A stretch of DNA of 64,000 nt from Blautia parvula (GTDB lineage: Bacteria > Bacillota > Clostridia > Lachnospirales > Lachnospiraceae), in NCBI RefSeq assembly GCF_020215665.1, contig NZ_CP084061.1, positions 2,326,001 to 2,390,000 of the forward strand. Reading direction: 5' to 3'. The position numbers and the translations under genes were made by a program. Shown here in pieces: positions 1-12,944 of this stretch (within the stretch, counting starts at the first letter, position 1; the number at the start of each line of letters is the position of its first letter). The notes under the pieces are model-generated. The model ran no database searches. It was not told the origin of the DNA and was given only the letters and a program-made list of their open reading frames with translations.

Positions 1-495
1 CAGCATGTCACTCCACGCGGAATCCAGGACAATAGTACATCCGGCCTCTTTCAGAGGCCTGCACAGATCCTTCTGCTCAAGAGAAAGGAATGCGATCCGG
101 CATCCTTCGTAAAACTCATATATTTTCTTTTTCTCCACTGCAAACGCCGCTTCCTCCGGCTTATAGGAGACAATCCCCCGATCCTGCATACAGGATACCA
201 CACAGCTCAGGGTAACCGGGTCCTCCTCATCCGTGGAGAGCATATTGGTGTATTCGATCTTATCTTTCTCCAGTTCTTTTACCAGATATCTGCTCAGCGG
301 CCCTTCTCCAATATAGGTTGCCAGCTTTACAGGTACGCCAAGCCTGGACAACTGGATAAGAGTTGCCACCGCTCCGCCTCCGAGCTGTTTGGAACAGCTC
401 TCGCTGTATACCTCCTCACCAAGCTTTGGCATTCTGCGGGCGTTTCCGAAAATAATATCCACATTGGCGATTCCAAATCCCCCTACACTGTTCAT
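1..495 (-). CDS. PfkB-family sugar kinase, C-terminus cut off by window edge
   Basis: Last visible gene of the operon on the left. The frame opens at an ATG (493-495) that overlaps the stop of the upstream GH4 gene as ATGA, so the two are translationally coupled. The 165 visible residues begin MNSVGGFGIANVDIIFGN and contain QLGGGAVATLIQLSRLG and a YIGEG segment, the substrate-binding half of ribokinase/PfkB kinases, which phosphorylate sugars or nucleosides with ATP. The C-terminal GAGD catalytic motif lies outside the window, so the substrate cannot be judged. From context it should phosphorylate a sugar, cyclitol or glycoside handled by this operon. Confidence 0.85.
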   Translation of the reverse strand, partial: MNSVGGFGIANVDIIFGNARRMPKLGEEVYSESCSKQLGGGAVATLIQLSRLGVPVKLATYIGEGPLSRYLVKELEKDKIEYTNMLSTDEEDPVTLSCVVSCMQDRGIVSYKPEEAAFAVEKKKIYEFYEGCRIAFLSLEQKDLCRPLKEAGCTIVLDSAWSDML

Positions 496-1868
496 ACCTT
501 CCATCCTCCTGTATACTCCTCATAAATCTCCAGATACTCCCTGAGCAGTTCCTCTGCCAGGGAATAGGAATTCACCAGAGGGTTCACCATAAGGGCATCT
601 ATGGCCTTCTTTGCATTGCGTTCCACTATGGCCTGGGCAGCTGTTCTCTCATAATACTTGACTGCACAGATGAGCTGCTTTGCGCTTTGGGGTAGAGTAT
701 ACGGCCCGGGTTTCGGCACTGCCCCTGCTTTTGAAATATGACAGGATACTTCAATCACATCCGTATCCTTTAACCAGTCCACAGTTCCCTGGTTGGGCAT
801 ACAGAGAATCATCTCTCCCTCTTTCCCTGTGATTTTAGCCCGCATAAGTGCCAAGGCTACCCCTGCATATCCGCCTTCATCTTTTGTACTCAGATCAAAT
901 TTCGGAATACAGGCATCATCCCTCGCCACAGATGTCTCGCCCTGCATATAATTGCTCTCTCTCATATATGTATGATCACGGTATATTTCCAGCATTTTGT
1001 CAAAATCTTTTCCGGCATCATACCGGCCCAGCTCCTGCAGCATACAGTCATTGATCCTCTTGATCCTTTCGCCCCTGGTCTCGCCGGTCTTCTGTATATT
1101 CTGCAGTGCCTTTTCCCTGTAATAGAAATAATAGAGATATTCATTGAGCATGCATCCCATGTGCTGTGCCAGCTTCGGTTCAAAATACCGCATGTCCGTC
1201 TGCTCATAGAGCCTGGGATCCTTTAATATCTCCGGGAGCATCTCCCTGTTCTCTTTTTTTACACTGGTAAAATAAGATAAATGGTTCAGACCTATGAGAT
1301 GCACCTGAAAATCCGAAGCCTCGGCCTTGTAAAGCCCGGCCACCTGCCGCATAAACCCGGAGGGAGCATCGCAGATTCCATACACAAAGGAATATCCCTG
1401 GTCTCTTAAAGCCTGTGTCACAAGCCCTGCAGGATTGGTAAAGTTAAATACCATCACATTAGGGGCAGCATATCTGCGGATCAGTTCACAATAGTGCAGC
1501 AGGGTGGGAATGGAGCGAAGGGCCATGGCAAACCCGCCTACCCCGGTTGTCTCCTGTCCTATCACTCCATGCTTCAGCGCTACCCGCTCATCTATGATAC
1601 GGCTTTCCTCTTTTCCCGCGCGGATGGTGGTGATGATAAAATCCGCCTCCCACACAGCCTCCTTTTCATCTGTTGTGCACACATAATGTACGGAAGGCGC
1701 TGTCCTGGCAAAGACCTCCTTTACCATTGAGCCGAAAACCCTGACCCGCTCTTGATCCGTATCCATAAAAACAACCTCTGTTATGCCAAGGCTTTCCGCC
1801 TGTTGTGCCAGACATTTTGCCAGCATCAGACTGCGTGAACCGCATCCGCCAATGACTGTTAACTTCAT
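492..1868 (-). CDS. Glycoside hydrolase family 4 (NAD/Mn-dependent glycosidase)
   Basis: 458 residues, the usual GH4 length. The N-terminus MKLTVIGGCGSRS is the NAD-binding Rossmann loop. GQETTGVGGFAMALRSIP (about 104-121), FNFTNPAGLV (141-150), GICDAP (164-169; Cys166 is the expected metal ligand) and GLNHLSYF (193-200; His196) are GH4 hallmarks. The family cleaves alpha or beta glycosides by oxidising C3 and eliminating the aglycone; members act on 6-phosphoglycosides or, in some branches, free glycosides. The CDxP form of the cysteine motif is closer to alpha-6-phosphoglucosidases than to the CNVP of beta enzymes, but that is only a hint. No PTS gene is present; the operon imports by ABC transport and carries its own kinase downstream. 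Confidence 0.9.
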   Translation of the reverse strand: MKLTVIGGCGSRSLMLAKCLAQQAESLGITEVVFMDTDQERVRVFGSMVKEVFARTAPSVHYVCTTDEKEAVWEADFIITTIRAGKEESRIIDERVALKHGVIGQETTGVGGFAMALRSIPTLLHYCELIRRYAAPNVMVFNFTNPAGLVTQALRDQGYSFVYGICDAPSGFMRQVAGLYKAEASDFQVHLIGLNHLSYFTSVKKENREMLPEILKDPRLYEQTDMRYFEPKLAQHMGCMLNEYLYYFYYREKALQNIQKTGETRGERIKRINDCMLQELGRYDAGKDFDKMLEIYRDHTYMRESNYMQGETSVARDDACIPKFDLSTKDEGGYAGVALALMRAKITGKEGEMILCMPNQGTVDWLKDTDVIEVSCHISKAGAVPKPGPYTLPQSAKQLICAVKYYERTAAQAIVERNAKKAIDALMVNPLVNSYSLAEELLREYLEIYEEYTGGWKV

Positions 1869-1881
1869 AAGCCTTCCTCCT

Positions 1882-3426
1882 TCAGTTTCCCATCATAATT
1901 TCCAAAATCTTGCTGTCCGTCTCTCTCATGCCGTCTTTTCCGATTCTGCCCACTGCCTCAATGGTCTCGTCTGCATTTTTACCCACAATACCCTCTCCCT
2001 CCATAAAGCGGCACTGGTTTTTCGCCATCTCATAGGCCAGAAGGCCTGTTTCCACAGACATGGCGATTTTTGCGGCACAGGAGGGCTTTGCGCCATCACA
2101 GAGCATGCCTGATATGGTAGCCAGTGTATTTGTGATAATATCCTCCATCACAGCAAGCGGCGCCTGATCCAGATATGCGATGCCGCAGACTGCGGCACAT
2201 CCGGCATTGACTGCCCCGCAGTAAGCAGAGAGCTTCCCGATTCCACGTTTTATATAAATAGAAATAAGATTTGCAAAGATCATTGCACGGTGCAATGCCT
2301 CCCGGCTCTTATCCTTTTTTTCCGCATAGATAGATATGGGGACCGCAATGGTGATTCCCTGGTTTCCGCTTCCGCAGTTTGCCACTACAGGCAGAACGCT
2401 TCCGCCCATTCTGGCATCACTTCCGGCTGCCGCATAAGCTGCCAGCACTGCAGCGTCTTCCTCTTTGTATAAACGCAGAAGATTTTTCCCCACCTTTGCC
2501 CCATAATCGTTTTTCATTCCTTCTTCCGCTATTTTCCGGTTGCAGGCGATCTGCATATCCAGAATATCCTTTAATTCTGCTGTACTGGTCTCACCTGCAA
2601 ACTCATATATATCTTTTAATTTCAGATCATCCTCATTTGTCTGTGTGCTGCCAACGCACTCCCGGCGCTGATACTGCTTTGTGATATCTCTGCCGTCTTT
2701 CTGTACTTTTGTTATATGGATATGGCTTTTCTGGATCTCCACCAAAGCGGTATGTTCCCCTTTTCGCAGGTCAATACGCACATACAGAGGTTCCTCCACC
2801 TCTGCCAGATGGATACTGTATGTACTCTCCTCCCGCACCAGCTTTCTCACTGTGTCTGCGTCATTGGCGGTGAGTGTGTTCAGTACCTCCAGTTTGCGTT
2901 TTGGATTTCCCCCCACGATTCCGCAGAAGGCAGCTTCTGCTACCCCCTTCAGGTTTCCGGTGTTGGGTATGATCACACTTTTTACATTTTTTAATATATT
3001 GCCGCTGACCCATATCTCCATATATTCCGGAATGTCACCCAGAATCTCTTTGGCACAGGCCGCCGCATAGGCAATGGTTCCCGGCTCCGTACATCCAAGA
3101 GCCAGCATGATTTCCTCTCTCAGCAGTTTATTGCAGGTTCTGTCCCTTCTTTCTCTGCTTTCTGTATCCTGAAGCGCCTGTATAAAGACCGCCTCTATTT
3201 TCTCCTTTGTCGGTACCCCTTCCATAACCATTTCGCCATCTATATAAAAGCAGGGTACATAAGTGAATTTCCTGCCTGCAGGCAGTTCTCTGTCCCGCTC
3301 TGTATCCAGAAAGCGTATCTCGATCTTTTCATATTTTTCATTGCTCCTTCGCAGTTCCTCCATCAGCCCAAAAGCCTGTCTGCAGTATCTGCATGTAACT
3401 CTGTATATCATCTCAATGGTTTTCAT
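1882..3426 (-). CDS. Glutaredoxin-like domain fused to L-cysteine desulfidase (CyuA/UPF0597 family)
   Basis: The frame is open upstream to 3711, but that part lies inside the M20 gene; ATG 3426 with a purine-rich AAGGGG site gives the sensible 514-residue product. Residues 1-85 form a thioredoxin-fold domain with a CRYC active site (12-15) and a cis-proline at YVPCF (58). Residues 95-514 are the cysteine desulfidase/serine-dehydratase-alpha-like domain with GCTEPG (111-116) and cysteines at 403, 410, 414, 443 and 450. The 403/443/450 spacing (40 and 7) matches, as I recall it, the Fe-S ligands of the Methanocaldococcus enzyme. The family breaks L-cysteine into pyruvate, ammonia and sulfide. 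The fused redox domain is unusual and may reduce a disulfide before cleavage. It overlaps the M20 gene by 14 bases. Confidence 0.88.
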   Translation of the reverse strand: MKTIEMIYRVTCRYCRQAFGLMEELRRSNEKYEKIEIRFLDTERDRELPAGRKFTYVPCFYIDGEMVMEGVPTKEKIEAVFIQALQDTESRERRDRTCNKLLREEIMLALGCTEPGTIAYAAACAKEILGDIPEYMEIWVSGNILKNVKSVIIPNTGNLKGVAEAAFCGIVGGNPKRKLEVLNTLTANDADTVRKLVREESTYSIHLAEVEEPLYVRIDLRKGEHTALVEIQKSHIHITKVQKDGRDITKQYQRRECVGSTQTNEDDLKLKDIYEFAGETSTAELKDILDMQIACNRKIAEEGMKNDYGAKVGKNLLRLYKEEDAAVLAAYAAAGSDARMGGSVLPVVANCGSGNQGITIAVPISIYAEKKDKSREALHRAMIFANLISIYIKRGIGKLSAYCGAVNAGCAAVCGIAYLDQAPLAVMEDIITNTLATISGMLCDGAKPSCAAKIAMSVETGLLAYEMAKNQCRFMEGEGIVGKNADETIEAVGRIGKDGMRETDSKILEIMMGN

Positions 3427-4621
3427 CTGTCTCAAACCCCTTTTCTGCAAATTCGGATGCCAGAACACAGAATGCAGCCGTGCCTTCCGCCAATATAGAT
3501 TCATCAATCTCAAAACAACTGCTGTGAAGCGGATACTGCTTTGCCTCTTCTTTTCGCCAGCAGCCCAGCCGCAGAAACAGGGACGGGCACTGAGCGCCGA
3601 AATATGAAAAATCCTCTCCCAGCATAGCCGGTTCTCCCTCTGTGAGGATCTCCGCCTCCTGCAGCTTCTCCCTGAGCACGCGGGCCGCCCAGTGTGCTGC
3701 TGTTTTGTCATTGACCGTTGCAGGATAACCGGAACTCATATGGTACGTCCCTTCCATTTCCCAGGCTTCTGCTATGGATTTTGTCAGTCTTTCCAGGCGG
3801 TGTATGATTTTCTCCCTCACATCCGGGTCATAGGTCCTGATGGTGCCTTCCAGATATCCGGTCTCTGCTACAACATTATATTTCTCTCCGCATTGTATCC
3901 GGCAGATGTTCACCACTGCTGCCTCCTGGGCAGATACCGTATCGGCTGTAATATTACCAATGGCATTTACCAGTGCAGCCATGGCGGGAATGGGATTTCT
4001 GCAGAGATGGGGAGATGCCCCGTGGCCTCCCTTTCCTTTTATCTCAATGCCGAACGCATCGGGCTGTGCCATAACAGGTCCCGGCATACAGGTTATGCTG
4101 CCTGCTCTCTGCGGCCAGACATGAAACGCAACTGTAAATTCCGGCTTTGGCTCATCCATGACTCCCTCTTCGATCATACGCCGGGCACCTCCCTGCTGTT
4201 CCTCGGAGGGCTGGAATAAAAAGACCACATTGCCGTGCAGACACTCCCTGCACTCCTGCAGAAGCCTGATACACCCAAGAAGTACAGCCATATGGACATC
4301 GTGCCCGCAGGCATGCATGACCCCAGGATTCTCAGACTGCCAGGCAAGACCTGTCTGTTCCGTCACCGGCAGAGCATCCATATCCGCGCGGAGGGCAATG
4401 GTATGCCCGGGCCTCCCGCTTTTGATGACTGCGTATACTCCTGTATCTGCACAGGGCCTGCACTCTACCTTCCATTTTTTCAGTTGTCCGAGAATCCATT
4501 CCTGTGTTTTATATTCCTGTCCCGATAGTTCCGGATGTCTGTGGAGATGGATGTAATAGCTTTTTATCTCTGCTTCTGCCTCCCGGACCTTTTGGTAAAA
4601 ATCAATTTTCACTCTGAACAC
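3413..4621 (-). CDS. M20D-family amidohydrolase (N-acyl-amino-acid hydrolase type)
   Basis: 402 residues. HRHPELSGQE (28-37), IALRADMDALP (75-85), HACGHDVHMA (103-112, Cys105 and His107 being likely metal ligands) and the LFQPSEE segment near 135-141 identify the M20D group (hippurate hydrolase, IAA-amino acid hydrolase, N-acetyl-cysteine or N-acetyl-diaminopimelate deacylases). These cytosolic metal enzymes remove an acyl group from the amino group of an amino acid. The gene lies directly before a cysteine desulfidase and after a PIG-L amidase, so an N-acyl-cysteine substrate is a reasonable inference, but the sequence does not fix specificity. Confidence 0.88.
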   Translation of the reverse strand: MFRVKIDFYQKVREAEAEIKSYYIHLHRHPELSGQEYKTQEWILGQLKKWKVECRPCADTGVYAVIKSGRPGHTIALRADMDALPVTEQTGLAWQSENPGVMHACGHDVHMAVLLGCIRLLQECRECLHGNVVFLFQPSEEQQGGARRMIEEGVMDEPKPEFTVAFHVWPQRAGSITCMPGPVMAQPDAFGIEIKGKGGHGASPHLCRNPIPAMAALVNAIGNITADTVSAQEAAVVNICRIQCGEKYNVVAETGYLEGTIRTYDPDVREKIIHRLERLTKSIAEAWEMEGTYHMSSGYPATVNDKTAAHWAARVLREKLQEAEILTEGEPAMLGEDFSYFGAQCPSLFLRLGCWRKEEAKQYPLHSSCFEIDESILAEGTAAFCVLASEFAEKGFETDENH

Positions 4622-4638
4622 CTCCCCGAAGCGTCTGC

Positions 4639-5316
4639 CTATTCTCCAGATTTTTTTCTCATAAGATTTGAGAGACTGTCCACTGTAATACTGTGCCCTA
4701 AAAACAGGCCCTCCGCATACTCTGTCTTTGCATCTCTCCCGTATTCCCTGGCAAGGCTCATAGCATAAGGCAGCACATCCTGGGAGCTGTGTGCCGTACA
4801 GGCACGTTTCTTTATCTCTATGACATCCGTGATATCCACATAGATATCAGGCCTGCGCCGGTTGGTCCTGTTGTCCGCCCCGAAAAAGAGAAGGGCATCA
4901 TAATGCCAGTCCGTATCGTCATCCGCATATTTTTTCAATCCCGCTGTAAAGCAGGCTGCCTTTGTTATTTTTGACACGGCTGTGTGGTCGGGATGGTAAT
5001 CCTCCTCTAAAAGTGTGAGAACAAACCGCGGTGAGCATTTCCGCAGATGCGGTATCAGAGCGTCCACTGCTTCCTTAGAAAAATACATGCCGGCATCCGG
5101 AAAATCCAGCATGGCAAAATAGTCAAGCTGCAGTATGGCGGCTGCTTTTTCCGCCTCCTCTTCTCTCACGCACTTCTGTGCATAACCTCCTGATTCTCCT
5201 CTTGTAAAAATCACAAGACCTGTTTTCAGTCCCTCTTTCTTTGCCTTTGCAAAGATACCCGCTGCGCAGACCTCCAGGTCATCCGGATGTGCGCAGACTG
5301 CCAAGATATCTATCAT
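4639..5316 (-). CDS. PIG-L/LmbE-family zinc deacetylase or amidase
   Basis: 225 residues. AHPDD (9-13) and DYHPDHTAV (106-114) are the two zinc and catalytic motifs of the PIG-L family. Known members are N-acetylglucosaminyl-PI de-N-acetylase, MshB, the mycothiol-S-conjugate amidase Mca and the bacillithiol enzymes BshB; all cut an amide on the nitrogen of glucosamine. The RGESGGYAQKCVREEEAEKAA segment region resembles BshB-like proteins. SD GGAGG lies just upstream. It sits between the permeases and the M20 hydrolase in one transcript, so an imported N-acylated amino-sugar compound is the probable substrate. Confidence 0.9.
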   Translation of the reverse strand: MIDILAVCAHPDDLEVCAAGIFAKAKKEGLKTGLVIFTRGESGGYAQKCVREEEAEKAAAILQLDYFAMLDFPDAGMYFSKEAVDALIPHLRKCSPRFVLTLLEEDYHPDHTAVSKITKAACFTAGLKKYADDDTDWHYDALLFFGADNRTNRRRPDIYVDITDVIEIKKRACTAHSSQDVLPYAMSLAREYGRDAKTEYAEGLFLGHSITVDSLSNLMRKKSGE

Positions 5317-5329
5317 TTCATTGCCTCCT

Positions 5330-6148
5330 TTACTGTTTTACGCCTGTTGTGGCAATCCCCTCCACAAACTGTTTCTGGAAGAGGAAGAAAATTATGATCA
5401 TGGGCAGTATGGCGATAATGCCGCCTGCCATGACCTGAGGATAATAAGTTGTATGTTCCCCGATCAACATAGCCAGCCCGGCTGACAAAGTCATCTTATC
5501 CATAGAGTTATTCACGATCAGCGGCCACATCAAATCCTTGAATGTGGAGATCGCAGTCAGTATTGCCAGAGATGACAGCGCAGGTTTTAAAAGCGGCAGT
5601 AAGATCCTGTAATAAATCTGGAAAAATCCGCAGCCGTCCAGCATAGCCGCCTCATCCAGGCTCCTGGGAAGCCCTTTAAAGAATTCCCTCAGCATAAATG
5701 TTCCGAATGCGCTGAATATCTTCGGAAGCCACAGGGCCGTCACGGTATCGGCCAGATGCAGCTTCACCATAATGTCATAATTGGGCACCAGAAATATCTG
5801 TCCCGGAACCATTAAGAGCGCCAAAAGCACGATAAAGATCACATCCCTGCCCGGAAAATGCAGCCTGGCAAACGCATAGGCGGCCATGGAGCAAATCAGC
5901 AGCTCTATCCCTATGGTAAATAAAAGAACTAAAAACGTATTCACATAAAAATCAAAAAACGGAAATTTATCTACCACTTCCCGGTAACTTCCCACGGTAA
6001 AAACTTCCGGAAAAATCGTAGGCGGTATCTGAATGCTCTCCTCGTATGACTTAAAGGAAGTCAAGATCATCCATAGAAACGGACCCACCGTCACAACCGC
6101 ACACAGAATAAGCAGCAGATACACCGGCCATTTTCTTTTTTTCATCAT
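5330..6148 (-). CDS. Carbohydrate ABC transporter permease (MalG type)
   Basis: 272 residues with an N-terminal membrane helix after KKRKWPV and about six transmembrane segments. The EAA loop is visible as SLDEAAMLDGCGFFQIYYRILLP region, the contact site for the ATPase. Such proteins pair with a MalF-type partner, here the gene upstream. No ATPase gene lies in the visible operon, so a shared MsmK/UgpC-type ATPase elsewhere in the genome is expected. Confidence 0.93.
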   Translation of the reverse strand: MMKKRKWPVYLLLILCAVVTVGPFLWMILTSFKSYEESIQIPPTIFPEVFTVGSYREVVDKFPFFDFYVNTFLVLLFTIGIELLICSMAAYAFARLHFPGRDVIFIVLLALLMVPGQIFLVPNYDIMVKLHLADTVTALWLPKIFSAFGTFMLREFFKGLPRSLDEAAMLDGCGFFQIYYRILLPLLKPALSSLAILTAISTFKDLMWPLIVNNSMDKMTLSAGLAMLIGEHTTYYPQVMAGGIIAILPMIIIFFLFQKQFVEGIATTGVKQ

Positions 6149-6178
6149 TCCATTCTCCTTTCCGCGTCCTGCTGCGCA

Positions 6179-7081
6179 TCAATCATCATAGAATACCAGT
6201 TTTTTCTGGCATATCATCTGCACCGCAGTAATTGCCAGAATCAGGAGAAACAGCATCAGGCTGATCGCCGCCCCATAGCCCTTATGGAACTTTACAAAGG
6301 ACTGCTCAAAGAAATAAGTGACCAGAGACCTGGATGCCTCCGTTCCGCTGCTTCCCTGGGGGATCATCAGATAGATAAAATCAAAGATCTGAAAAACGTT
6401 TATGACTGTTGTGACGCACACAAAGAAAATGGATGGGGACAGCAGCGGCAGTGTGATCTTAAAAAACCTCTGCACTCCATTTGCCCCGTCAATTTCAGCG
6501 GCTTCCCTGTAGCATACCGGAATCCCCTGCAGTCCGGCCAGCAGCACGATCACCTGATATGCCACGCTGGCCCAGATAAATACTATGGAAATAGAAAACA
6601 ACACGATCCGGGAATCCGACAGCCAGGCCACCGGCTCCACGCCGAATTTTCCCAATATCTCATTGAAAATACCGAATTTATAATTCATCAGCCACTTCCA
6701 TAAGAGTCCGATCGCAGCCGGCAGCGTTACGGCCGGCAGGAAGATACAGACCCGGAAGGCTCCGATTCCCTTTACTTTGGAATTGAGCAGAACAGCCAAT
6801 AACACAGCCAGTATCACCACCAGCGGCACGCAGATGACCACATACAGGATGGTATTGATAAACGCCTGATAAAATGCGTCATCCTGGAATAGCTTCACAT
6901 AATTCTCCATGCCCACAAACTTAGGTATTCCGAAACTGGACTTGTTTGTAAAGCTGTAATAAACGTTCTGAAAAAACGCCCCGATAAAAAACACGATCAC
7001 CCCTGCCATCAGCGGCGCGATCATCAGGTATCCTGTTATTATCTCCCGGCGCCTCAGGGAACCCTTTTTCTGTCTTTTCAT
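6179..7081 (-). CDS. Carbohydrate ABC transporter permease (MalF type)
   Basis: 300 residues from ATG 7081; a TTG three bases upstream is also in frame but the ATG is better placed after GGAGAGGG. The positively charged N-terminus MKRQKKGSLRRRE is followed by about six membrane segments. The EAA motif is near YREAAEIDGANGVQRFFKITLP. It forms the translocation channel with the MalG-type protein. A 12-bp inverted repeat separates it from the binding-protein gene. Confidence 0.93.
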   Translation of the reverse strand: MKRQKKGSLRRREIITGYLMIAPLMAGVIVFFIGAFFQNVYYSFTNKSSFGIPKFVGMENYVKLFQDDAFYQAFINTILYVVICVPLVVILAVLLAVLLNSKVKGIGAFRVCIFLPAVTLPAAIGLLWKWLMNYKFGIFNEILGKFGVEPVAWLSDSRIVLFSISIVFIWASVAYQVIVLLAGLQGIPVCYREAAEIDGANGVQRFFKITLPLLSPSIFFVCVTTVINVFQIFDFIYLMIPQGSSGTEASRSLVTYFFEQSFVKFHKGYGAAISLMLFLLILAITAVQMICQKKLVFYDD

Positions 7082-7110
7082 CAAACACCCTCTCCTGTCG
7101 TTTTAAAAAC

Positions 7111-7145
7111 GGAAGTGCTGCAGATTCGTCCTGTGCAGCACTTCC
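7111..7145 (-). terminator. Intercistronic hairpin between binding protein and permeases
   Basis: Perfect 12-bp stem (GGAAGTGCTGCA pairs with TGCAGCACTTCC, 11-nt loop), read on the minus strand and followed by GTTTTTAAAAC. In binding-protein operons such hairpins commonly cause partial termination or protect the 3' end of the binding-protein message, giving more binding protein than permease. Role inferred from position. Confidence 0.6.
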
Positions 7146-7153
7146 ATCCCGTT

Positions 7154-8440
7154 TTATGATTCACTGTCCAATGCGCTCTGTGTTGCTTCCTGCATCTGTT
7201 TACATCCCTCTTCCGGAGTCAGTTCCTTTGCAAATATCTTTGCTGAGATTTCATTTACAGTGGGAAGCCATTCTGCCACGCTGGATGATGTCGGGAAGGG
7301 GAATCCTGTCTCAGCCACATCGAATATGACATTTACATCTACATGCTCTGCTTTGTAATACTGCTGTGCGCTGATCAGTGCAGGGACATCAATCTTCGCC
7401 TCTGCCTGCATCTTATTGGACTCTTCTCCTGCCAGATATTTCACCAGTTTCCACGCTGCATCTTTATCTTTGCTGCTGGAATTGACTGCATATCCAAGGC
7501 CGCCGATGACACTCTGATTTCCGCTTTCCTTTGCGGGCATGGCAATGGTTCCCACCTGCTCTGCAAAGCTTGCTTCGTCAATGACTGCTGTTTTCCAGGA
7601 GCCCATGAAAAGGATGGCCCCCTTCTGGGACAGGAACAGATCTGTTCCCTTCGTATCGGAGAGCACTTCACTTCCCGGCATCAGGCCTTCATCCATCAGT
7701 GATACCATATCTGTATATGCTTTTACGGTTCCCTCCTGGTCAAAACCTGCTTTCTTCATGTCATCACTCAAAACATAACCGCCTGACTGGTTGATAAAAT
7801 TAAAGAAAGACGGCTGTGGATCCAGTTCCATCAAAATCGGGTATTCATCGGAGCCTGCTTCTTCAATCTTAGCTTTTAACTGTCCTGCCAGATTCTTCAT
7901 ATCCTCCCAGGTCCACCCTGCCTGTGGTTCCTCCACACCGTATTTTTCAAAAATACCTTTGTTGTAGAAGACCTGTACAGTGTCCATTCCCTTCGGCATA
8001 CAGTATTGCACATCATTGTAATTGTAAGCATCTTTTACAACACTTACATAGTCATCCATATTTACCTTATCCTTCTCAATGTATTCGTCCAGGGGTTCCA
8101 GAACACCGGCCTCTGCGTATTTGGGAAGATATGTATTCATCCAGAAAACATCTGCTGCACTGTCGGAGCCCATGGCTGCATCCAGCTTTGTCCAATACTG
8201 TGACCACGGCGTCAGCTGCAGTTCCACATCAATATCAGGATTTTCTGTCTCGAATTTCTCTACGATCTCATCAAACACCGGTTTCTGCACTTCATCCCAG
8301 AGTGCAAATGAGATTTTTGTCTTCTCTGAGCTGTTATCCTTTTTTGCCTCGTCTTTACCTGCATCTGCCTGGGAGTTTCCGCAGGCTGCCAGAGAACCTG
8401 CCATTAAGAGTGTCAGCATCATACACATTCCTTTTTTCAT
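7154..8440 (-). CDS. Extracellular sugar-binding lipoprotein of ABC importer
   Basis: 428 residues. The N-terminus MKKGMCMMLTLLMAGSLAACGNS is a lipoprotein signal with lipobox LAAC, followed by a charged low-complexity linker and an SBP_bac_1 fold (FALWDEVQKPVFDEIVEKFE, FFNFINQSGGYVLSDD). It captures the substrate outside the membrane for the two permeases downstream. The family is known for sugars and amino-sugar oligomers. The exact ligand is not predictable here. Confidence 0.92.
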   Translation of the reverse strand: MKKGMCMMLTLLMAGSLAACGNSQADAGKDEAKKDNSSEKTKISFALWDEVQKPVFDEIVEKFETENPDIDVELQLTPWSQYWTKLDAAMGSDSAADVFWMNTYLPKYAEAGVLEPLDEYIEKDKVNMDDYVSVVKDAYNYNDVQYCMPKGMDTVQVFYNKGIFEKYGVEEPQAGWTWEDMKNLAGQLKAKIEEAGSDEYPILMELDPQPSFFNFINQSGGYVLSDDMKKAGFDQEGTVKAYTDMVSLMDEGLMPGSEVLSDTKGTDLFLSQKGAILFMGSWKTAVIDEASFAEQVGTIAMPAKESGNQSVIGGLGYAVNSSSKDKDAAWKLVKYLAGEESNKMQAEAKIDVPALISAQQYYKAEHVDVNVIFDVAETGFPFPTSSSVAEWLPTVNEISAKIFAKELTPEEGCKQMQEATQSALDSES

Positions 8441-8474
8441 TTTGTACCTCCATACCTTTCATCTTTCCGTATTT

Positions 8475-9467
8475 TTATTTCCTGTTTACAGTTTCCTTTG
8501 ATATTGCTTTACTTTTCTGGTTGACAACACAGGTTTCTCCCTGTTCCAGCCGATAGGGCAGTGTGATCTCTATATTTTCTTCCTTTTTCTGATTCTGGAA
8601 CGTATCCAGTGTCTGTTCTATCATTTTTTTAATAGGCTGGCTGATGGTAGTCAGTTTCGGTGTCACCTGTCTGGATAAGCTGATTCCGTCAAATCCCATC
8701 ACAGATACGTCCTCCGGAACTTTCAGTCCCACCTCAGACAGCGCACTGATCACACCCAGGGCTGCTTCATCGCTGAAAGCAAAGGCAGCCGTAAAAGTGA
8801 TCCCTTCTCTGATGGCCTGTGCAGTCATCCGGTAACCGCTGTCATATGTCAGCTCACCATATTTCACCTTATTCTCATCAAACTCCAGACCGAATTCCTC
8901 AAAAGCTCTTTTGCATCCTGTAATACGCTGAAATCCGGAACTGATGCTTTTCGGATAATCGGATAAGATCAAAATCTGTTCGTGCTGCAGGTTAAGCAGA
9001 TATCTGGCTCCCTCATGGGCGGCTGCCAAATCATTGATATGGATCATCTTACATCTCTTGTCAGCACTGATCGCACCGAACATGACTGTCTTGATATTCT
9101 TGGCTGCTATGTAATTCAGCATATCTTGGTCTGCATTTTCCTCCAGATAGATAACTCCCGTAATATCCAGCTCTTTAAAAAATTGTTTGTATGCCTCCCC
9201 CTGTTCCGTAACAGGGATAAATACCATCCTGTATCCGTATCTCGGCACGGCCTCCAGCAGCTCTCTCAGCACCTCGCTGAAATACGCCAGCTTCAGGTTC
9301 GGAATCAGAACAGCTATGACACCGGGGTTTTTCTGCTTATACACAGGTGTATATGCAAGCTCCCGGACAGCCTCCTCAATCCGCTTTGCCGCCTCTGTTG
9401 TCACAATGTTCTTCCCGTGAAAATATCTTGAAACAGTGGCCGGTGATACTCCTGCTCTTTTCGCCAC
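8475..9467 (-). CDS. LacI-family transcriptional regulator; 5' end appears frameshifted
   Basis: LacI-type repressor: helix-turn-helix AKRAGVSPATVSRYFHGKN at the N-terminus, then a periplasmic-binding-protein-like effector domain ending in LEQGETCVVNQKS. The open frame has only a GTG start (9465-9467), which would cut into DNA-binding helix 1. A strong AGAGGTGA site followed five bases later by an ATG (9485-9487) lies upstream in the wrong frame; one extra G in the four-G run after that ATG would give MGATIRDVAKRAGVS, a perfect LacI start. So either a real frameshift, a sequencing error, or a shortened protein. First gene of the operon and its likely local regulator. Confidence 0.88.
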   Translation of the reverse strand: MAKRAGVSPATVSRYFHGKNIVTTEAAKRIEEAVRELAYTPVYKQKNPGVIAVLIPNLKLAYFSEVLRELLEAVPRYGYRMVFIPVTEQGEAYKQFFKELDITGVIYLEENADQDMLNYIAAKNIKTVMFGAISADKRCKMIHINDLAAAHEGARYLLNLQHEQILILSDYPKSISSGFQRITGCKRAFEEFGLEFDENKVKYGELTYDSGYRMTAQAIREGITFTAAFAFSDEAALGVISALSEVGLKVPEDVSVMGFDGISLSRQVTPKLTTISQPIKKMIEQTLDTFQNQKKEENIEITLPYRLEQGETCVVNQKSKAISKETVNRK

Positions 9468-9575
9468 ATCTCTTATGGTTGCCCCATTTACATCACCTCT
9501 CTTTTGTGCACTTTACAATGTTTTCCAGTATTTTCTACCCTTCCCTTGTGCTTTTCAACCAACTTTATGAGACTT

Positions 9576-9604
9576 ATTATAGAAACAGCCATGTAAAATG
9601 TCAA
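9576..9604 (-). promoter_or_regulatory. Sigma-A promoter of the LacI/ABC/GH4 operon
   Basis: On the minus strand, TTGACA (9599-9604) is separated by 17 bases from TATAAT (9576-9581), a full consensus. Directly upstream (9605 to about 9642) are four copies of TGAAAC on the same strand, at steps of 9, 11 and 9 bases, a likely binding site for a regulator. Confidence 0.85.
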
Positions 9605-9712
9605 TATTGTTTCATTTGTTTCACTTTTGTTTCATGAGTTTCATATGATTTCTTTCAATTTACTGATAAAATCCCTCTTTTTTCTGTCCCGCCTCCCTGA
9701 TCTCCCGGCACA

Positions 9713-11024: not shown

Positions 11025-12203
11025 TTAGTGATGGAACAGACGAATGCCTGTAAATGCCATCGCCATATTGTACTTATTGCAGCACTCAATGACTGCGTCA
11101 TCGCGTACGGAGCCGCCCGGCTCTGCGATGTATTTTACGCCGCTCTTGTAAGCGCGCTCGATATTGTCTGAGAACGGGAAGAAGGCATCAGAACCTAATG
11201 TAACATCTGTCAGCTTGTCCAGCCATGCGCGTTTTTCCTCACGTGTGAACACTTCCGGTTTCTCTTTGAAGATCTTTTCCCATGCTCCGTCAGCCAGAAC
11301 ATCCATATATTCCTCACCGATGTAAACATCAATGGCATTGTCTCTGTCAGCACGGCGGATACCGTCGATAAACGGCAGATCCAGTACCTTCGGGCACTGT
11401 CTCAGCCACCAGTTATCAGCCTTCTGGCCTGCCAGACGGGTACAGTGTACACGTGACTGCTGGCCTGCGCCGATACCGATCGCCTGTCCGTCTTTTACGA
11501 AACAGACGGAATTTGACTGTGTATATTTCAGTGTGATCAGAGAAATCTTCAGGTCCATCAGCGCATTTGCAGGAATCTCTTTATTCTCTGTCACAACATT
11601 GGAAAGCAGCTCATCATCAATGGAAAGCTCCTGTCTTCCCTGTTCAAATGTGATGCCGAATACCTCTTTATGCTCCAGCGGAGCCGGCTGGTAATCCGGG
11701 TCGATCTTGATCACATTGTAGTTGCCGTTCTTTTTCTGTTTCAGGATTTCCAGTGCCTCATCGGTATATCCGGGAGCGATAACACCGTCGGAAACCTCTC
11801 TCTTGATCAGCATTGCTGTGTCTTTATCACACACATCAGACAGGGAGATAAAATCTCCGAAGGAGGACATTCTGTCAGCGCCCCTTGCTCTCGCATAGGC
11901 ACATGCCAGCGGTGATAACTCGCCCATATCGTCTACCCAGTAGATTTTTTTCAGCACATCTGTCATAGGAAGTCCCACTGCCGCGCCTGCCGGAGACACA
12001 TGTTTAAAGGAAGTCGCTGCCGGAAGCCCTGTGGCTTTTTTCAGCTCTTTCACCAACTGCCAGCCATTAAAAGCATCCAGGAAATTAATATATCCCGGCT
12101 TGCCGCTTAAAACTTCGATAGGAAGTTCGCTGCCGTCAGCCACATAGATTCTGGAAGGTTTCTGGTTCGGATTACATCCGTACTTTAACGCTAATTCTTT
12201 CAT
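11025..12203 (-). CDS. purH: AICAR transformylase (stand-alone PurH formyltransferase domain)
   Basis: 392 residues, beginning MKELALKYGCNPNQKPSRIY. SFKHVSPAGAAVGLP, YARARGADRMSSFGDFISL, GIGAGQQSRVHCTRLA and AFFPFSDNIERA are the active-site blocks of the AICARFT domain, which formylates AICAR with 10-formyl-THF in purine synthesis. The N-terminal MGS-type IMP-cyclohydrolase domain of the usual 510-residue bacterial PurH is absent; that activity is supplied by the PurO-type gene just upstream. Together they finish IMP synthesis under ZTP riboswitch control. Confidence 0.95.
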   Translation of the reverse strand: MKELALKYGCNPNQKPSRIYVADGSELPIEVLSGKPGYINFLDAFNGWQLVKELKKATGLPAATSFKHVSPAGAAVGLPMTDVLKKIYWVDDMGELSPLACAYARARGADRMSSFGDFISLSDVCDKDTAMLIKREVSDGVIAPGYTDEALEILKQKKNGNYNVIKIDPDYQPAPLEHKEVFGITFEQGRQELSIDDELLSNVVTENKEIPANALMDLKISLITLKYTQSNSVCFVKDGQAIGIGAGQQSRVHCTRLAGQKADNWWLRQCPKVLDLPFIDGIRRADRDNAIDVYIGEEYMDVLADGAWEKIFKEKPEVFTREEKRAWLDKLTDVTLGSDAFFPFSDNIERAYKSGVKYIAEPGGSVRDDAVIECCNKYNMAMAFTGIRLFHH

Positions 12204-12230
12204 ATTCCGATTCTCCTTTATGCTTTTCTA

Positions 12231-12944
12231 TTATTTATTTTTATTCACGATCCTGGTTTCATACTCACCGGTTGCGATATCTATATAACGTACAAACAGA
12301 GATACCTTATTGTCCTCATTCAGACTCTCCCACACATCTTTTGTGAATGCATCGATATCATTGGGAACTCCCACCAGCTTCGGTTCTCCCTCAAAACTCG
12401 GCAGCGGATTGCCGTCATGCATATAAGTATGAATGAAATGTCCCTCTCCGTTAACCGGGTTTTCATAGGTAAATGTATAACGGCAGCAGCTCTCAGGATT
12501 GCCGTTATTGCTCTTTAAAATAGACATGGCATAGTGGTATGTGCCGTTCTCCACCTGCATGATACCGGAGATTCTCGGTGTATAATTAGGGCCGTCCGGC
12601 TCAAATTCACGAGTTCTCAGGGACTGCTCAAAGGAGATTCCCTTTTCCATACCTTCATAGACAGTGTCTGTCTGGTCACCGTTGGTGACGATCGTCTTAT
12701 TTCCGATCACACGTACCGGTGCATATATAATCAGGCTGGGATCAGTCAGCTTAGACGGGTCAAATGCCTGGGTGCGGATACCCTCTCCCTCTTCAACGAA
12801 CACACGGTTTCTGCTGTTCTCACTTCTGCCCATGATAAAATATGCAGTAACTGCCTTTGTTCCATCCTCAGACTTACCAATAACAATTCCCCTGCCCGGG
12901 TACGCATTTTCTCTCAATTCATTTTCAAGTGATAACATTTTCAT
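12231..12944 (-). CDS. purO: IMP cyclohydrolase, PurO type
   Basis: 237 residues with NAYPGRGIVIG near the N-terminus, YFIMGRSENSRNRVF, and NYTPRISG, matching the PurO/IMP_cyclohyd family first described in archaea, which closes FAICAR to IMP. It lies 27 bases upstream of the stand-alone AICAR transformylase and directly downstream of a ZTP riboswitch, which fixes its role. SD AAGGAG precedes the ATG. Confidence 0.92.
   Translation of the reverse strand: MKMLSLENELRENAYPGRGIVIGKSEDGTKAVTAYFIMGRSENSRNRVFVEEGEGIRTQAFDPSKLTDPSLIIYAPVRVIGNKTIVTNGDQTDTVYEGMEKGISFEQSLRTREFEPDGPNYTPRISGIMQVENGTYHYAMSILKSNNGNPESCCRYTFTYENPVNGEGHFIHTYMHDGNPLPSFEGEPKLVGVPNDIDAFTKDVWESLNEDNKVSLFVRYIDIATGEYETRIVNKNK

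What the first reader, a model, noticed from the sequence alone, without database searches (positions are those of the whole stretch)
1..9604. Possible salvage operon for a cysteine-glucosamine thiol such as mycothiol or bacillithiol
Seen: one minus-strand transcript codes for a LacI regulator, ABC sugar importer, PIG-L amidase, M20 acyl-amino-acid hydrolase, cysteine desulfidase with a glutaredoxin-like domain, GH4 glycosidase and PfkB kinase. Known: mycothiol is N-acetyl-Cys amide-linked to GlcN, alpha-linked to inositol; Mca (a PIG-L enzyme) cuts the Cys-GlcN amide, M20 enzymes remove N-acetyl from amino acids, CyuA-type enzymes break Cys to pyruvate, ammonia and sulfide, and GH4 can cut alpha-glycosides. 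Bacillithiol (Cys-GlcN-malate) fits nearly as well. Inference: each enzyme matches one bond, and the redox domain would open the disulfide. A non-thiol N-acyl-amino-sugar compound is the main alternative; cysteine desulfidase argues against it.
Basis: partly seen in the sequence, partly recalled or inferred. Interest (0 to 1): 0.85.

Follow-up and report, generated by a model that had tools for sequence, protein, structure and literature searches.

The report
Gut-bacterial operon that may eat mycothiol
A gut-type bacterium carries an operon whose enzymes, read together, look like a pathway for importing and dismantling mycothiol, a protective sulfur compound of other bacteria, into cysteine, amino sugar and inositol; no enzyme has been tested.

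Summary
Window 9604 to 1 (minus strand) carries a perfect sigma-70 promoter, then LacI, ABC binding protein, two permeases, PIG-L, M20, a CxxC thioredoxin domain fused to a CyuA-type cysteine desulfidase, GH4 and PfkB. PfkB ends beyond the window edge and is followed by a terminator.

(1) M20's close solved relatives include YxeP, an N-acetylcysteine deacetylase.
(2) CyuA keeps the Cys/Glu dyad that separates cysteine desulfidases from serine dehydratases.
(3) GH4 belongs to the 6-phosphoglycosidase type (8 of 9 ChbF subsite residues) and sits beside PfkB, so the kinase probably acts before GH4 and glucosamine-6-phosphate is released.
(4) PIG-L is BshB1-like but lacks the Arg proposed to contact GlcNAc-malate.

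Points 1, 4 and 5 favour mycothiol (AcCys-GlcN-inositol) over bacillithiol. Against certainty: only 4 of 7 operons hold all five enzymes. CyuA is missing from two, M20 from one and GH4 from one. The redox domain is lost or absent in others. Substrate and activities are inferred.

The parts
9576..9604 (-). sigma-70 promoter TTGACA-17-TATAAT; tandem TGAAACA repeats (probable LacI operator half-sites) lie just upstream, 9607-9643
   Evidence: 12 of 12 match; the pattern TGAAACAAATGAAACAA has its only exact match in the genome here, a second 2-mismatch copy 20 bases further, and two 2-mismatch copies elsewhere; the backwards control gave one match; similar repeats stand upstream of the operons in L042-L045
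8475..9467 (-). LacI-family regulator (start uncertain, HTH frame continues upstream to about 9490)
   Evidence: Pfam LacI, Peripla_BP_3; 54-56% identical to LacI of four simpler GH4-PfkB modules
7154..8440 (-). ABC solute-binding lipoprotein (carbohydrate type)
   Evidence: Pfam SBP_bac_1; best solved match Lmo0181 127 bits; further down other sugar binders and the acarbose/maltose binder GacH, 81 bits
6179..7084 (-). ABC permease 1 (sugar, UgpA-like)
   Evidence: Pfam BPD_transp_1, NCBIfam UgpA below cut-off
5330..6148 (-). ABC permease 2 (sugar, UgpE-like)
   Evidence: Pfam BPD_transp_1, NCBIfam UgpE below cut-off
4639..5316 (-). PIG-L/LmbE amidase; proposed to cut the AcCys-GlcN amide
   Evidence: Pfam PIG-L 89.6 bits; BshB1 148.9 bits, below cut-off 182.5; keeps His10, Asp12, Asp13, Arg51, His108, Asp110, His111, with Tyr107 at BshB Arg109
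3413..4621 (-). M20 amidohydrolase; proposed N-acetylcysteine deacetylase
   Evidence: TIGR01891 343 bits, cut-off 153.75; solved relatives 4ewt 219 bits and YxeP 1ysj 215 bits; YxeP deacetylates N-acetylcysteine (PMC9706529)
1882..3426 (-). thioredoxin-like domain (CRYC, residues 12-15) fused to CyuA-type L-cysteine desulfidase
   Evidence: Thioredoxin_3 and SDH_alpha; solved cysteine desulfidase 9he0, 98.5 bits; CTEP 112-115 and Fe-S cysteines in AYCGAV 401-406 and CDGAKPSCA 443-451
492..1868 (-). GH4 NAD-dependent glycosidase of the 6-phosphoglycosidase type (CDAP motif)
   Evidence: Pfam GH4; best solved match 6-phospho-beta-glucosidase 169 bits, plain alpha-glucosidase 1obb 31 bits; 8 of 9 ChbF -1 subsite residues kept
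1..504 (-). PfkB kinase, cut by the window edge (complete in L004:11575-12504); proposed to phosphorylate GlcN-X
   Evidence: Pfam PfkB; ribokinase-like solved matches, weakly also acarbose 7-phosphotransferase 6wb7 at 30.7 bits

Best explanation
A LacI-controlled catabolic operon for a cysteinyl-glucosamine glycoside, most likely mycothiol (N-acetyl-Cys-GlcN-inositol) or its disulfide or conjugates. Proposed order: the ABC system imports it; PIG-L hydrolyses the AcCys-GlcN amide (as Mca does); M20 deacetylates N-acetylcysteine; CyuA splits cysteine into pyruvate, ammonia and sulfide, with the fused thioredoxin domain, where present, perhaps keeping the thiol reduced; PfkB phosphorylates GlcN-inositol at C6; GH4 releases GlcN6P and inositol; inositol enters the host's iol pathway encoded elsewhere. 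Shown here: gene content, conservation, key residues, co-occurrence with iolD. Inferred: every reaction and the substrate.
For: Single unit with perfect promoter and a terminator-like stem. Same order in four genomes and variants in three more. CyuA and M20 were seen only where PIG-L is: by tblastn 0 of 10 GH4 neighbourhoods without PIG-L hold either (L024-L031, L033, L078). CyuA has the Cys/Glu dyad and the three Fe-S cysteines (PMC12647591 passages). M20 is close to YxeP, an N-acetylcysteine deacetylase. GH4 keeps 8 of 9 ChbF subsite residues including Arg96 and Arg282, which E. coli MelA lacks in the alignment, and PfkB homologues stand in 9 of those 10 other GH4 neighbourhoods; ChbF acts only after deacetylation to GlcN6P (PMC13197890), which would explain PIG-L with GH4. 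BshB Arg109 is Tyr or Cys in 7 of 7 PIG-L rows. iolD over cut-off in 7 of 7 operon genomes against 40 of 299. In G329 a PIG-L paralogue with its own ABC genes lies about 8 kb from an iol cluster.
Against: Only 4 of 7 operons hold all five enzymes; Dorea and G329 lack CyuA, Robinsoniella lacks M20 and GH4 in the operon, though Robinsoniella has a GH4-PfkB module elsewhere and Dorea another CyuA. PIG-L scores far higher to BshB1 than to Mca (148.9 against 27.6 bits). No LacI site within two mismatches was found near iolD; two such sites elsewhere were not followed. A supply of mycothiol in these hosts' habitats was not shown.
Confidence: 0.47

Rival explanations
1. Bacillithiol (Cys-GlcN-malate) or a close relative is the substrate: PIG-L acts like Bca, CyuA uses the cysteine, PfkB and GH4 release GlcN6P and malate.
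For: PIG-L is nearest to BshB1, the GlcNAc-malate deacetylase (solved 6p2t, so named, and 2ixd). Robinsoniella's operon lacks M20, as expected for a thiol without N-acetyl.
Against: BshB Arg109, a docking-proposed substrate contact whose Lys mutant loses activity (PMC4101496), is Tyr or Cys in 7 of 7 rows. A YxeP-like M20 is in 5 of 7 operons and a 36% M20 beside a sixth. The iolD association has no place in it.
Confidence: 0.13
2. An ordinary N-acetylglucosaminide (chitobiose, GlcNAc-inositol, GPI-type fragment) is the substrate: PIG-L deacetylates it, PfkB phosphorylates, GH4 cuts, as ChbG and ChbF do; M20 and CyuA serve something else or were added by chance.
For: Core of ABC genes, PIG-L and PfkB is in 7 of 7 and GH4 in 6 of 7, whereas CyuA is in 5 and M20 in 6. 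PIG-L also matches diacetylchitobiose deacetylases. ChbG-ChbF logic is published (PMC13197890).
Against: CyuA and M20 sit inside the unit, overlap or abut neighbours, and the operon CyuA copies are closer to each other (60-78% to the window) than to other copies in the same genomes (28-44%). They were seen only with PIG-L (0 of 10 without).
Confidence: 0.24
3. The substrate is an S-linked GlcNAc-cysteine from S-glycosylated peptides: PIG-L deacetylates, PfkB phosphorylates, GH4 breaks the S-glycosidic bond, M20 frees cysteine, CyuA degrades it.
For: GH4 enzymes cleave S-glycosides too (PMC10628242 passage). All five enzymes would be used.
Against: Does not explain iolD co-occurrence. Natural S-GlcNAc-Cys is scarce (recalled).
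Confidence: 0.07
4. Mucin-type GalNAc-Ser/Thr is the substrate and the CyuA homologue is a serine dehydratase.
For: Pfam names the domain serine dehydratase alpha chain.
Against: The Cys/Glu dyad absent from SdaA/B is present; L-serine inhibits MmCyuA (PMC12647591). GH4 is not of the MelA type.
Confidence: 0.03

Closest known systems
Mycothiol conjugate amidase Mca and mycothiol recycling in Actinobacteria
   Same: A PIG-L-family enzyme cuts the Cys-GlcN amide, giving a mercapturic acid and GlcN-inositol (PMC4101496, section 2.6 read)
   Different: There GlcN-inositol is reused and the mercapturic acid exported; here importer, deacetylase, desulfidase, kinase and GH4 point to full catabolism. 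Window PIG-L is BshB1-like, not Mca-like, by score
Enterobacterial chb operon (ChbG deacetylase with GH4 ChbF)
   Same: N-deacylation before GH4 cleavage of a 6-phosphorylated glucosaminide (PMC13197890 passages); 8 of 9 subsite residues
   Different: ChbG is unrelated to PIG-L (YdjC type, recalled), phosphorylation is by a PTS, and there is no cysteine chemistry
Bacillus yxe (scm) operon for S-(2-succino)cysteine
   Same: ABC importer plus M20 enzyme YxeP deacetylating N-acetylcysteine (PMC9706529 passages)
   Different: No PIG-L, GH4, PfkB or CyuA in the components that those passages list
E. coli cyuPA and MmCyuA L-cysteine desulfidase
   Same: CyuA-type enzyme with CTE motif and three conserved cysteines
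   Different: Here inside a sugar-type operon and, in two genomes, fused to a CxxC thioredoxin domain
LacI-GH4-PfkB modules of other genomes of the family (L025-L028; L024 has GH4-PfkB only)
   Same: Homologous LacI (54-56%), GH4 (49-53%) and PfkB (37-42%)
   Different: They lack PIG-L, M20 and CyuA

Membership tests
PIG-L/LmbE amidase-deacetylase superfamily | HXDD plus distant His zinc site; conserved Arg and His (MshB Arg68, His144) | tested here: met
   H10-P-D12-D13, H111, R51, H108, D110 invariant in 7 rows; PF02585 89.6 bits
Mycothiol conjugate amidase Mca (TIGR03446) | equivalog cut-off 277.15 bits | tested here: not met
   27.6 bits
Bacillithiol deacetylase BshB1 (TIGR04001) | equivalog cut-off 182.5 bits | tested here: not met
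   148.9 bits window; 161, 147.6 and 146.9 in three relatives
Bacillithiol deacetylase BshB1 | Arg109, docking-proposed contact with GlcNAc-malate | tested here: not met
   Tyr107 in window, Tyr or Cys in 7 of 7 rows
L-cysteine desulfidase CyuA | Cys23/Glu25 dyad and three Fe-S cysteines of MmCyuA | tested here: met
   pairwise alignment to 9he0 and alignment with E. coli CyuA
L-cysteine desulfidase CyuA | turnover of L-cysteine to sulfide, pyruvate, ammonia | not testable with these tools
   needs enzyme assay
GH4 6-phosphoglycosidase | -1 subsite residues of ChbF (R96 E112 T113 N150 C172 N173 H203 Y258 R282) | tested here: met
   8 of 9 kept, N173 is Asp; MelA has Thr at R96 and a gap at R282
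GH4 6-phosphoglycosidase | activity on a 6-phosphorylated glucosaminide | not testable with these tools
   needs enzyme assay
M20 N-acetylcysteine deacetylase (YxeP type) | subfamily profile TIGR01891 and closeness to YxeP | tested here: met
   343 bits over 153.75; 1ysj 215 bits, second to 4ewt; activity not tested
Mycothiol catabolic pathway | all five enzymes together in orthologous operons | tested here: inconclusive
   4 of 7 genomes, three of six lineages
Mycothiol catabolic pathway | host carries the inositol-catabolism marker iolD | tested here: met
   over cut-off in 7 of 7, against 40 of 299; use of inositol itself not tested

The most novel reading that the evidence does not exclude
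Gut Clostridia possess a dedicated import-and-degradation pathway for mycothiol-type redox thiols of other bacteria, running through GlcN6P-inositol made by a PfkB glycoside kinase and cut by a GH4 enzyme, and releasing sulfide through a thioredoxin-fused cysteine desulfidase: feeding on a neighbour's redox buffer.
Probability: 0.4. Interest if true: 0.8.

Novelty: new variant of a known kind. Interest (0 to 1): 0.62.

Why it matters
If right, it would be a pathway by which an anaerobe uses the redox thiol of another phylum as a source of carbon, nitrogen and sulfur. It would tie bacterial thiol turnover to sulfide release, give a function to a clade of GH4-PfkB pairs, and provide a genomic marker for mycothiol use. 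Of ten searches of the open-paper library, five were aimed at mycothiol or bacillithiol breakdown; their listings showed no description of such an operon. Subscription journals are mostly not held there.

Tried and rejected
Plasmid search with PIG-L gave one distant haloarchaeal record (31%), not useful. Looking for a link between LacI and iol genes: apart from the promoter, only two 2-mismatch sites, neither near iolD and neither followed. The iol neighbourhoods fetched from five other hosts (L092-L096; that of G568 was not fetched) held no PIG-L or GH4 homologue by tblastn. The serine-dehydratase reading was rejected on the Cys/Glu dyad. A stand-alone thioredoxin-like protein in Robinsoniella (L079) lies beside genes that looked unrelated by eye and was dropped. 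No structure prediction was run: the folds are clear from sequence and a model would not settle the substrate.
Full report
WHAT IS THERE. The window is positions 2326001-2390000 of a single-contig 6.25 Mb genome. On its minus strand, from a perfect promoter at 9604-9576, lie lacI, binding protein, two permeases, PIG-L, M20, thioredoxin-CyuA, GH4 and PfkB. PfkB runs off the window; the complete gene (309 aa) is in L004 and is followed by a 15-pair terminator-like stem. The next gene, an SNF-family transporter, lies beyond it.

WHERE ELSE. PIG-L relatives are rare: 1 of 20 genomes of the genus and 4 of 392 of the order (both at E 1e-25), and 1 of 398 of the phylum (at E 1e-40); each count includes the window genome. 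G000, L042, G568 and L043 have the full order. L044 lacks CyuA. L045 lacks M20 and GH4. L040 lacks CyuA and has a 36% M20 beyond a transporter gene and a distant lacI, so perhaps on another transcript (absences checked by tblastn). So PIG-L, PfkB, binding protein and permeases are in 7 of 7, GH4 and M20 in 6 of 7, CyuA in 5 of 7, and all five enzymes in 4 of 7, i.e. three of six lineages.

A SIMPLER ANCESTOR. In a sample of 299 family genomes, 10 carry this GH4 at E 1e-60. L025-L028 hold LacI-GH4-PfkB and L024 holds GH4-PfkB, without PIG-L, M20 or CyuA. More distant GH4 neighbourhoods (L029-L031, L033, L078) also lack them. In all, CyuA or M20 homologues appear in 0 of 10 GH4 neighbourhoods without PIG-L, and PfkB homologues in 9 of 10 (tblastn at 1e-5; fetched stretches of 14-20 kb; the 4 kb contig L032 was left out). 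This suggests that amide-cutting and cysteine-handling enzymes were added together to a GH4-PfkB glycoside module.

ENZYME BY ENZYME. CyuA: 98.5 bits to solved L-cysteine desulfidase 9he0. Passages of the MmCyuA paper (PMC12647591) name Cys23 and Glu25 as essential and not conserved in serine dehydratases, and Cys287, Cys329 and Cys336 as cluster ligands; all align with identical residues in the window and the other operon copies. The thioredoxin domain has CRYC in the window and CRHC in L043. In Blautia only a remnant of its beginning is left, and Robinsoniella has none. M20: TIGR01891 well over cut-off, solved relatives 4ewt and YxeP; YxeP deacetylates N-acetylcysteine to cysteine (PMC9706529 passages). 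PIG-L: zinc and catalytic residues kept, BshB1-like but below the equivalog cut-off; Arg109 of BshB, a docking-proposed substrate contact whose Lys mutant loses activity (PMC4101496 passages), is Tyr or Cys in all 7 rows aligned. GH4: nearest solved proteins are 6-phospho-beta- and 6-phospho-alpha-glucosidases; the plain alpha-glucosidase 1obb scores 31 bits. Eight of nine ChbF subsite residues listed in PMC13197890 (passages) are kept, including two arginines that E. coli MelA lacks in the alignment. The ninth is Asp, as in the CDMP motif that I recall for 6-phospho-alpha-glucosidases; a search with that motif found no paper naming it. PfkB: generic ribokinase-like; a PfkB named acarbose 7-phosphotransferase (6wb7), which acts on an intact pseudo-oligosaccharide, is among weak matches.

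THE PATHWAY. ChbF does not cut GlcNAc6P-GlcNAc but needs prior deacetylation to GlcN6P-GlcNAc (PMC13197890). By the same logic PIG-L frees the amine, PfkB supplies the 6-phosphate that a PTS supplies in chb, and GH4 releases GlcN6P. Because CyuA and an N-acetylcysteine-type M20 travel with PIG-L, the acyl group is probably N-acetylcysteinyl. This is mycothiol if the aglycone is inositol. All steps are inferred.

THE INOSITOL LINK. iolD (TIGR04377) is over cut-off in 7 of 7 operon genomes and in 40 of 299 family genomes (the 40 include three operon genomes). Caveats: carriers have large genomes; 19 of the 40 positives are at least 3.3 Mb, whereas 3 of the 21 genomes G001-G021 are; extrapolating that gives, very roughly, 40-45% iolD among large genomes, which would make 6 of 6 lineages a chance of the order of 1%, not 1e-6. 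Carriers of the GH4 clade as a whole are enriched too: 6 of 10 against 34 of 289 (Fisher one-sided 0.0006, three of the six being operon genomes). In G329 a PIG-L paralogue (39-40%) with ABC genes and what look by eye like two-component genes stands about 8 kb from an iol cluster whose iolC, iolD and iolE pass NCBIfam cut-offs (iolB does not). In the five other hosts whose iol region was fetched, no PIG-L or GH4 lies there, and no LacI site within two mismatches lies near the window genome's iolD.

WHAT SPEAKS AGAINST. The enzyme set varies; PIG-L resembles BshB1 more than Mca; the operon's LacI is shared with modules that lack the cysteine enzymes; no mycothiol source in the habitat was shown; and E-values and residue conservation cannot fix a substrate. 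A plain N-acetylglucosaminide remains the main alternative.

NOVELTY. Each enzyme family is known; the combination and the proposed pathway were not seen in the listings of five literature searches aimed at mycothiol or bacillithiol breakdown; five further searches concerned single enzymes. Of papers, I saw passages of six (PMC12817932, PMC12647591, PMC4101496 with one section, PMC10628242, PMC13197890, PMC9706529). I file it as a new variant of a known kind, a catabolic operon with an unusual proposed substrate.

Noticed in passing
window about 9467-9510, minus strand; also L042, L039, L043, L044: lacI has a good ribosome site and an ATGGGG that lie one base out of frame with the conserved HTH (ATIRDVAKRAGVS) in five genomes of four lineages. 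Blautia and G568 have no in-frame ATG, GTG or TTG before the HTH and the window's first is a GTG inside it; but L043 has an in-frame GTG two codons before it and L044 an in-frame ATG 14 codons before it, and Robinsoniella has ATGGGG in frame. Substitutions in the HTH fall mainly at third codon positions, so it is translated: perhaps a -1 slip at GGGG or an unusual start.
   Followed up: partly
L091 3904-18881 and L041 3775-10872 (G329 contig 18): A PIG-L paralogue with ABC importer genes (and, by eye, two-component genes) stands about 8 kb from an inositol catabolism cluster; the contig ends right after PIG-L.
   Followed up: partly
L031 3038-16221 (G000 about 3.08 Mb), L029, L030: A recurring module joins a GH38 alpha-mannosidase, an M17 aminopeptidase, PfkB, ABC genes and a CDAP-type GH4; substrate unknown, possibly a mannose-containing glycoside (GH38 and M17 were checked in L031 only, GH4 in L031 by tblastn).
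   Followed up: no
L006 679-8059 (G000 about 6.16 Mb): A third CyuA paralogue (38%) lies in a cluster with ABC sugar-type genes, a response regulator and another M20-like peptidase, possibly a second cysteine-conjugate pathway (regulator and peptidase named by eye).
   Followed up: no
window 11025-12944, minus strand: Next to the operon lie a separate AICAR transformylase-domain protein and an IMP cyclohydrolase-like protein (PF07826) instead of one fused PurH.
   Followed up: no
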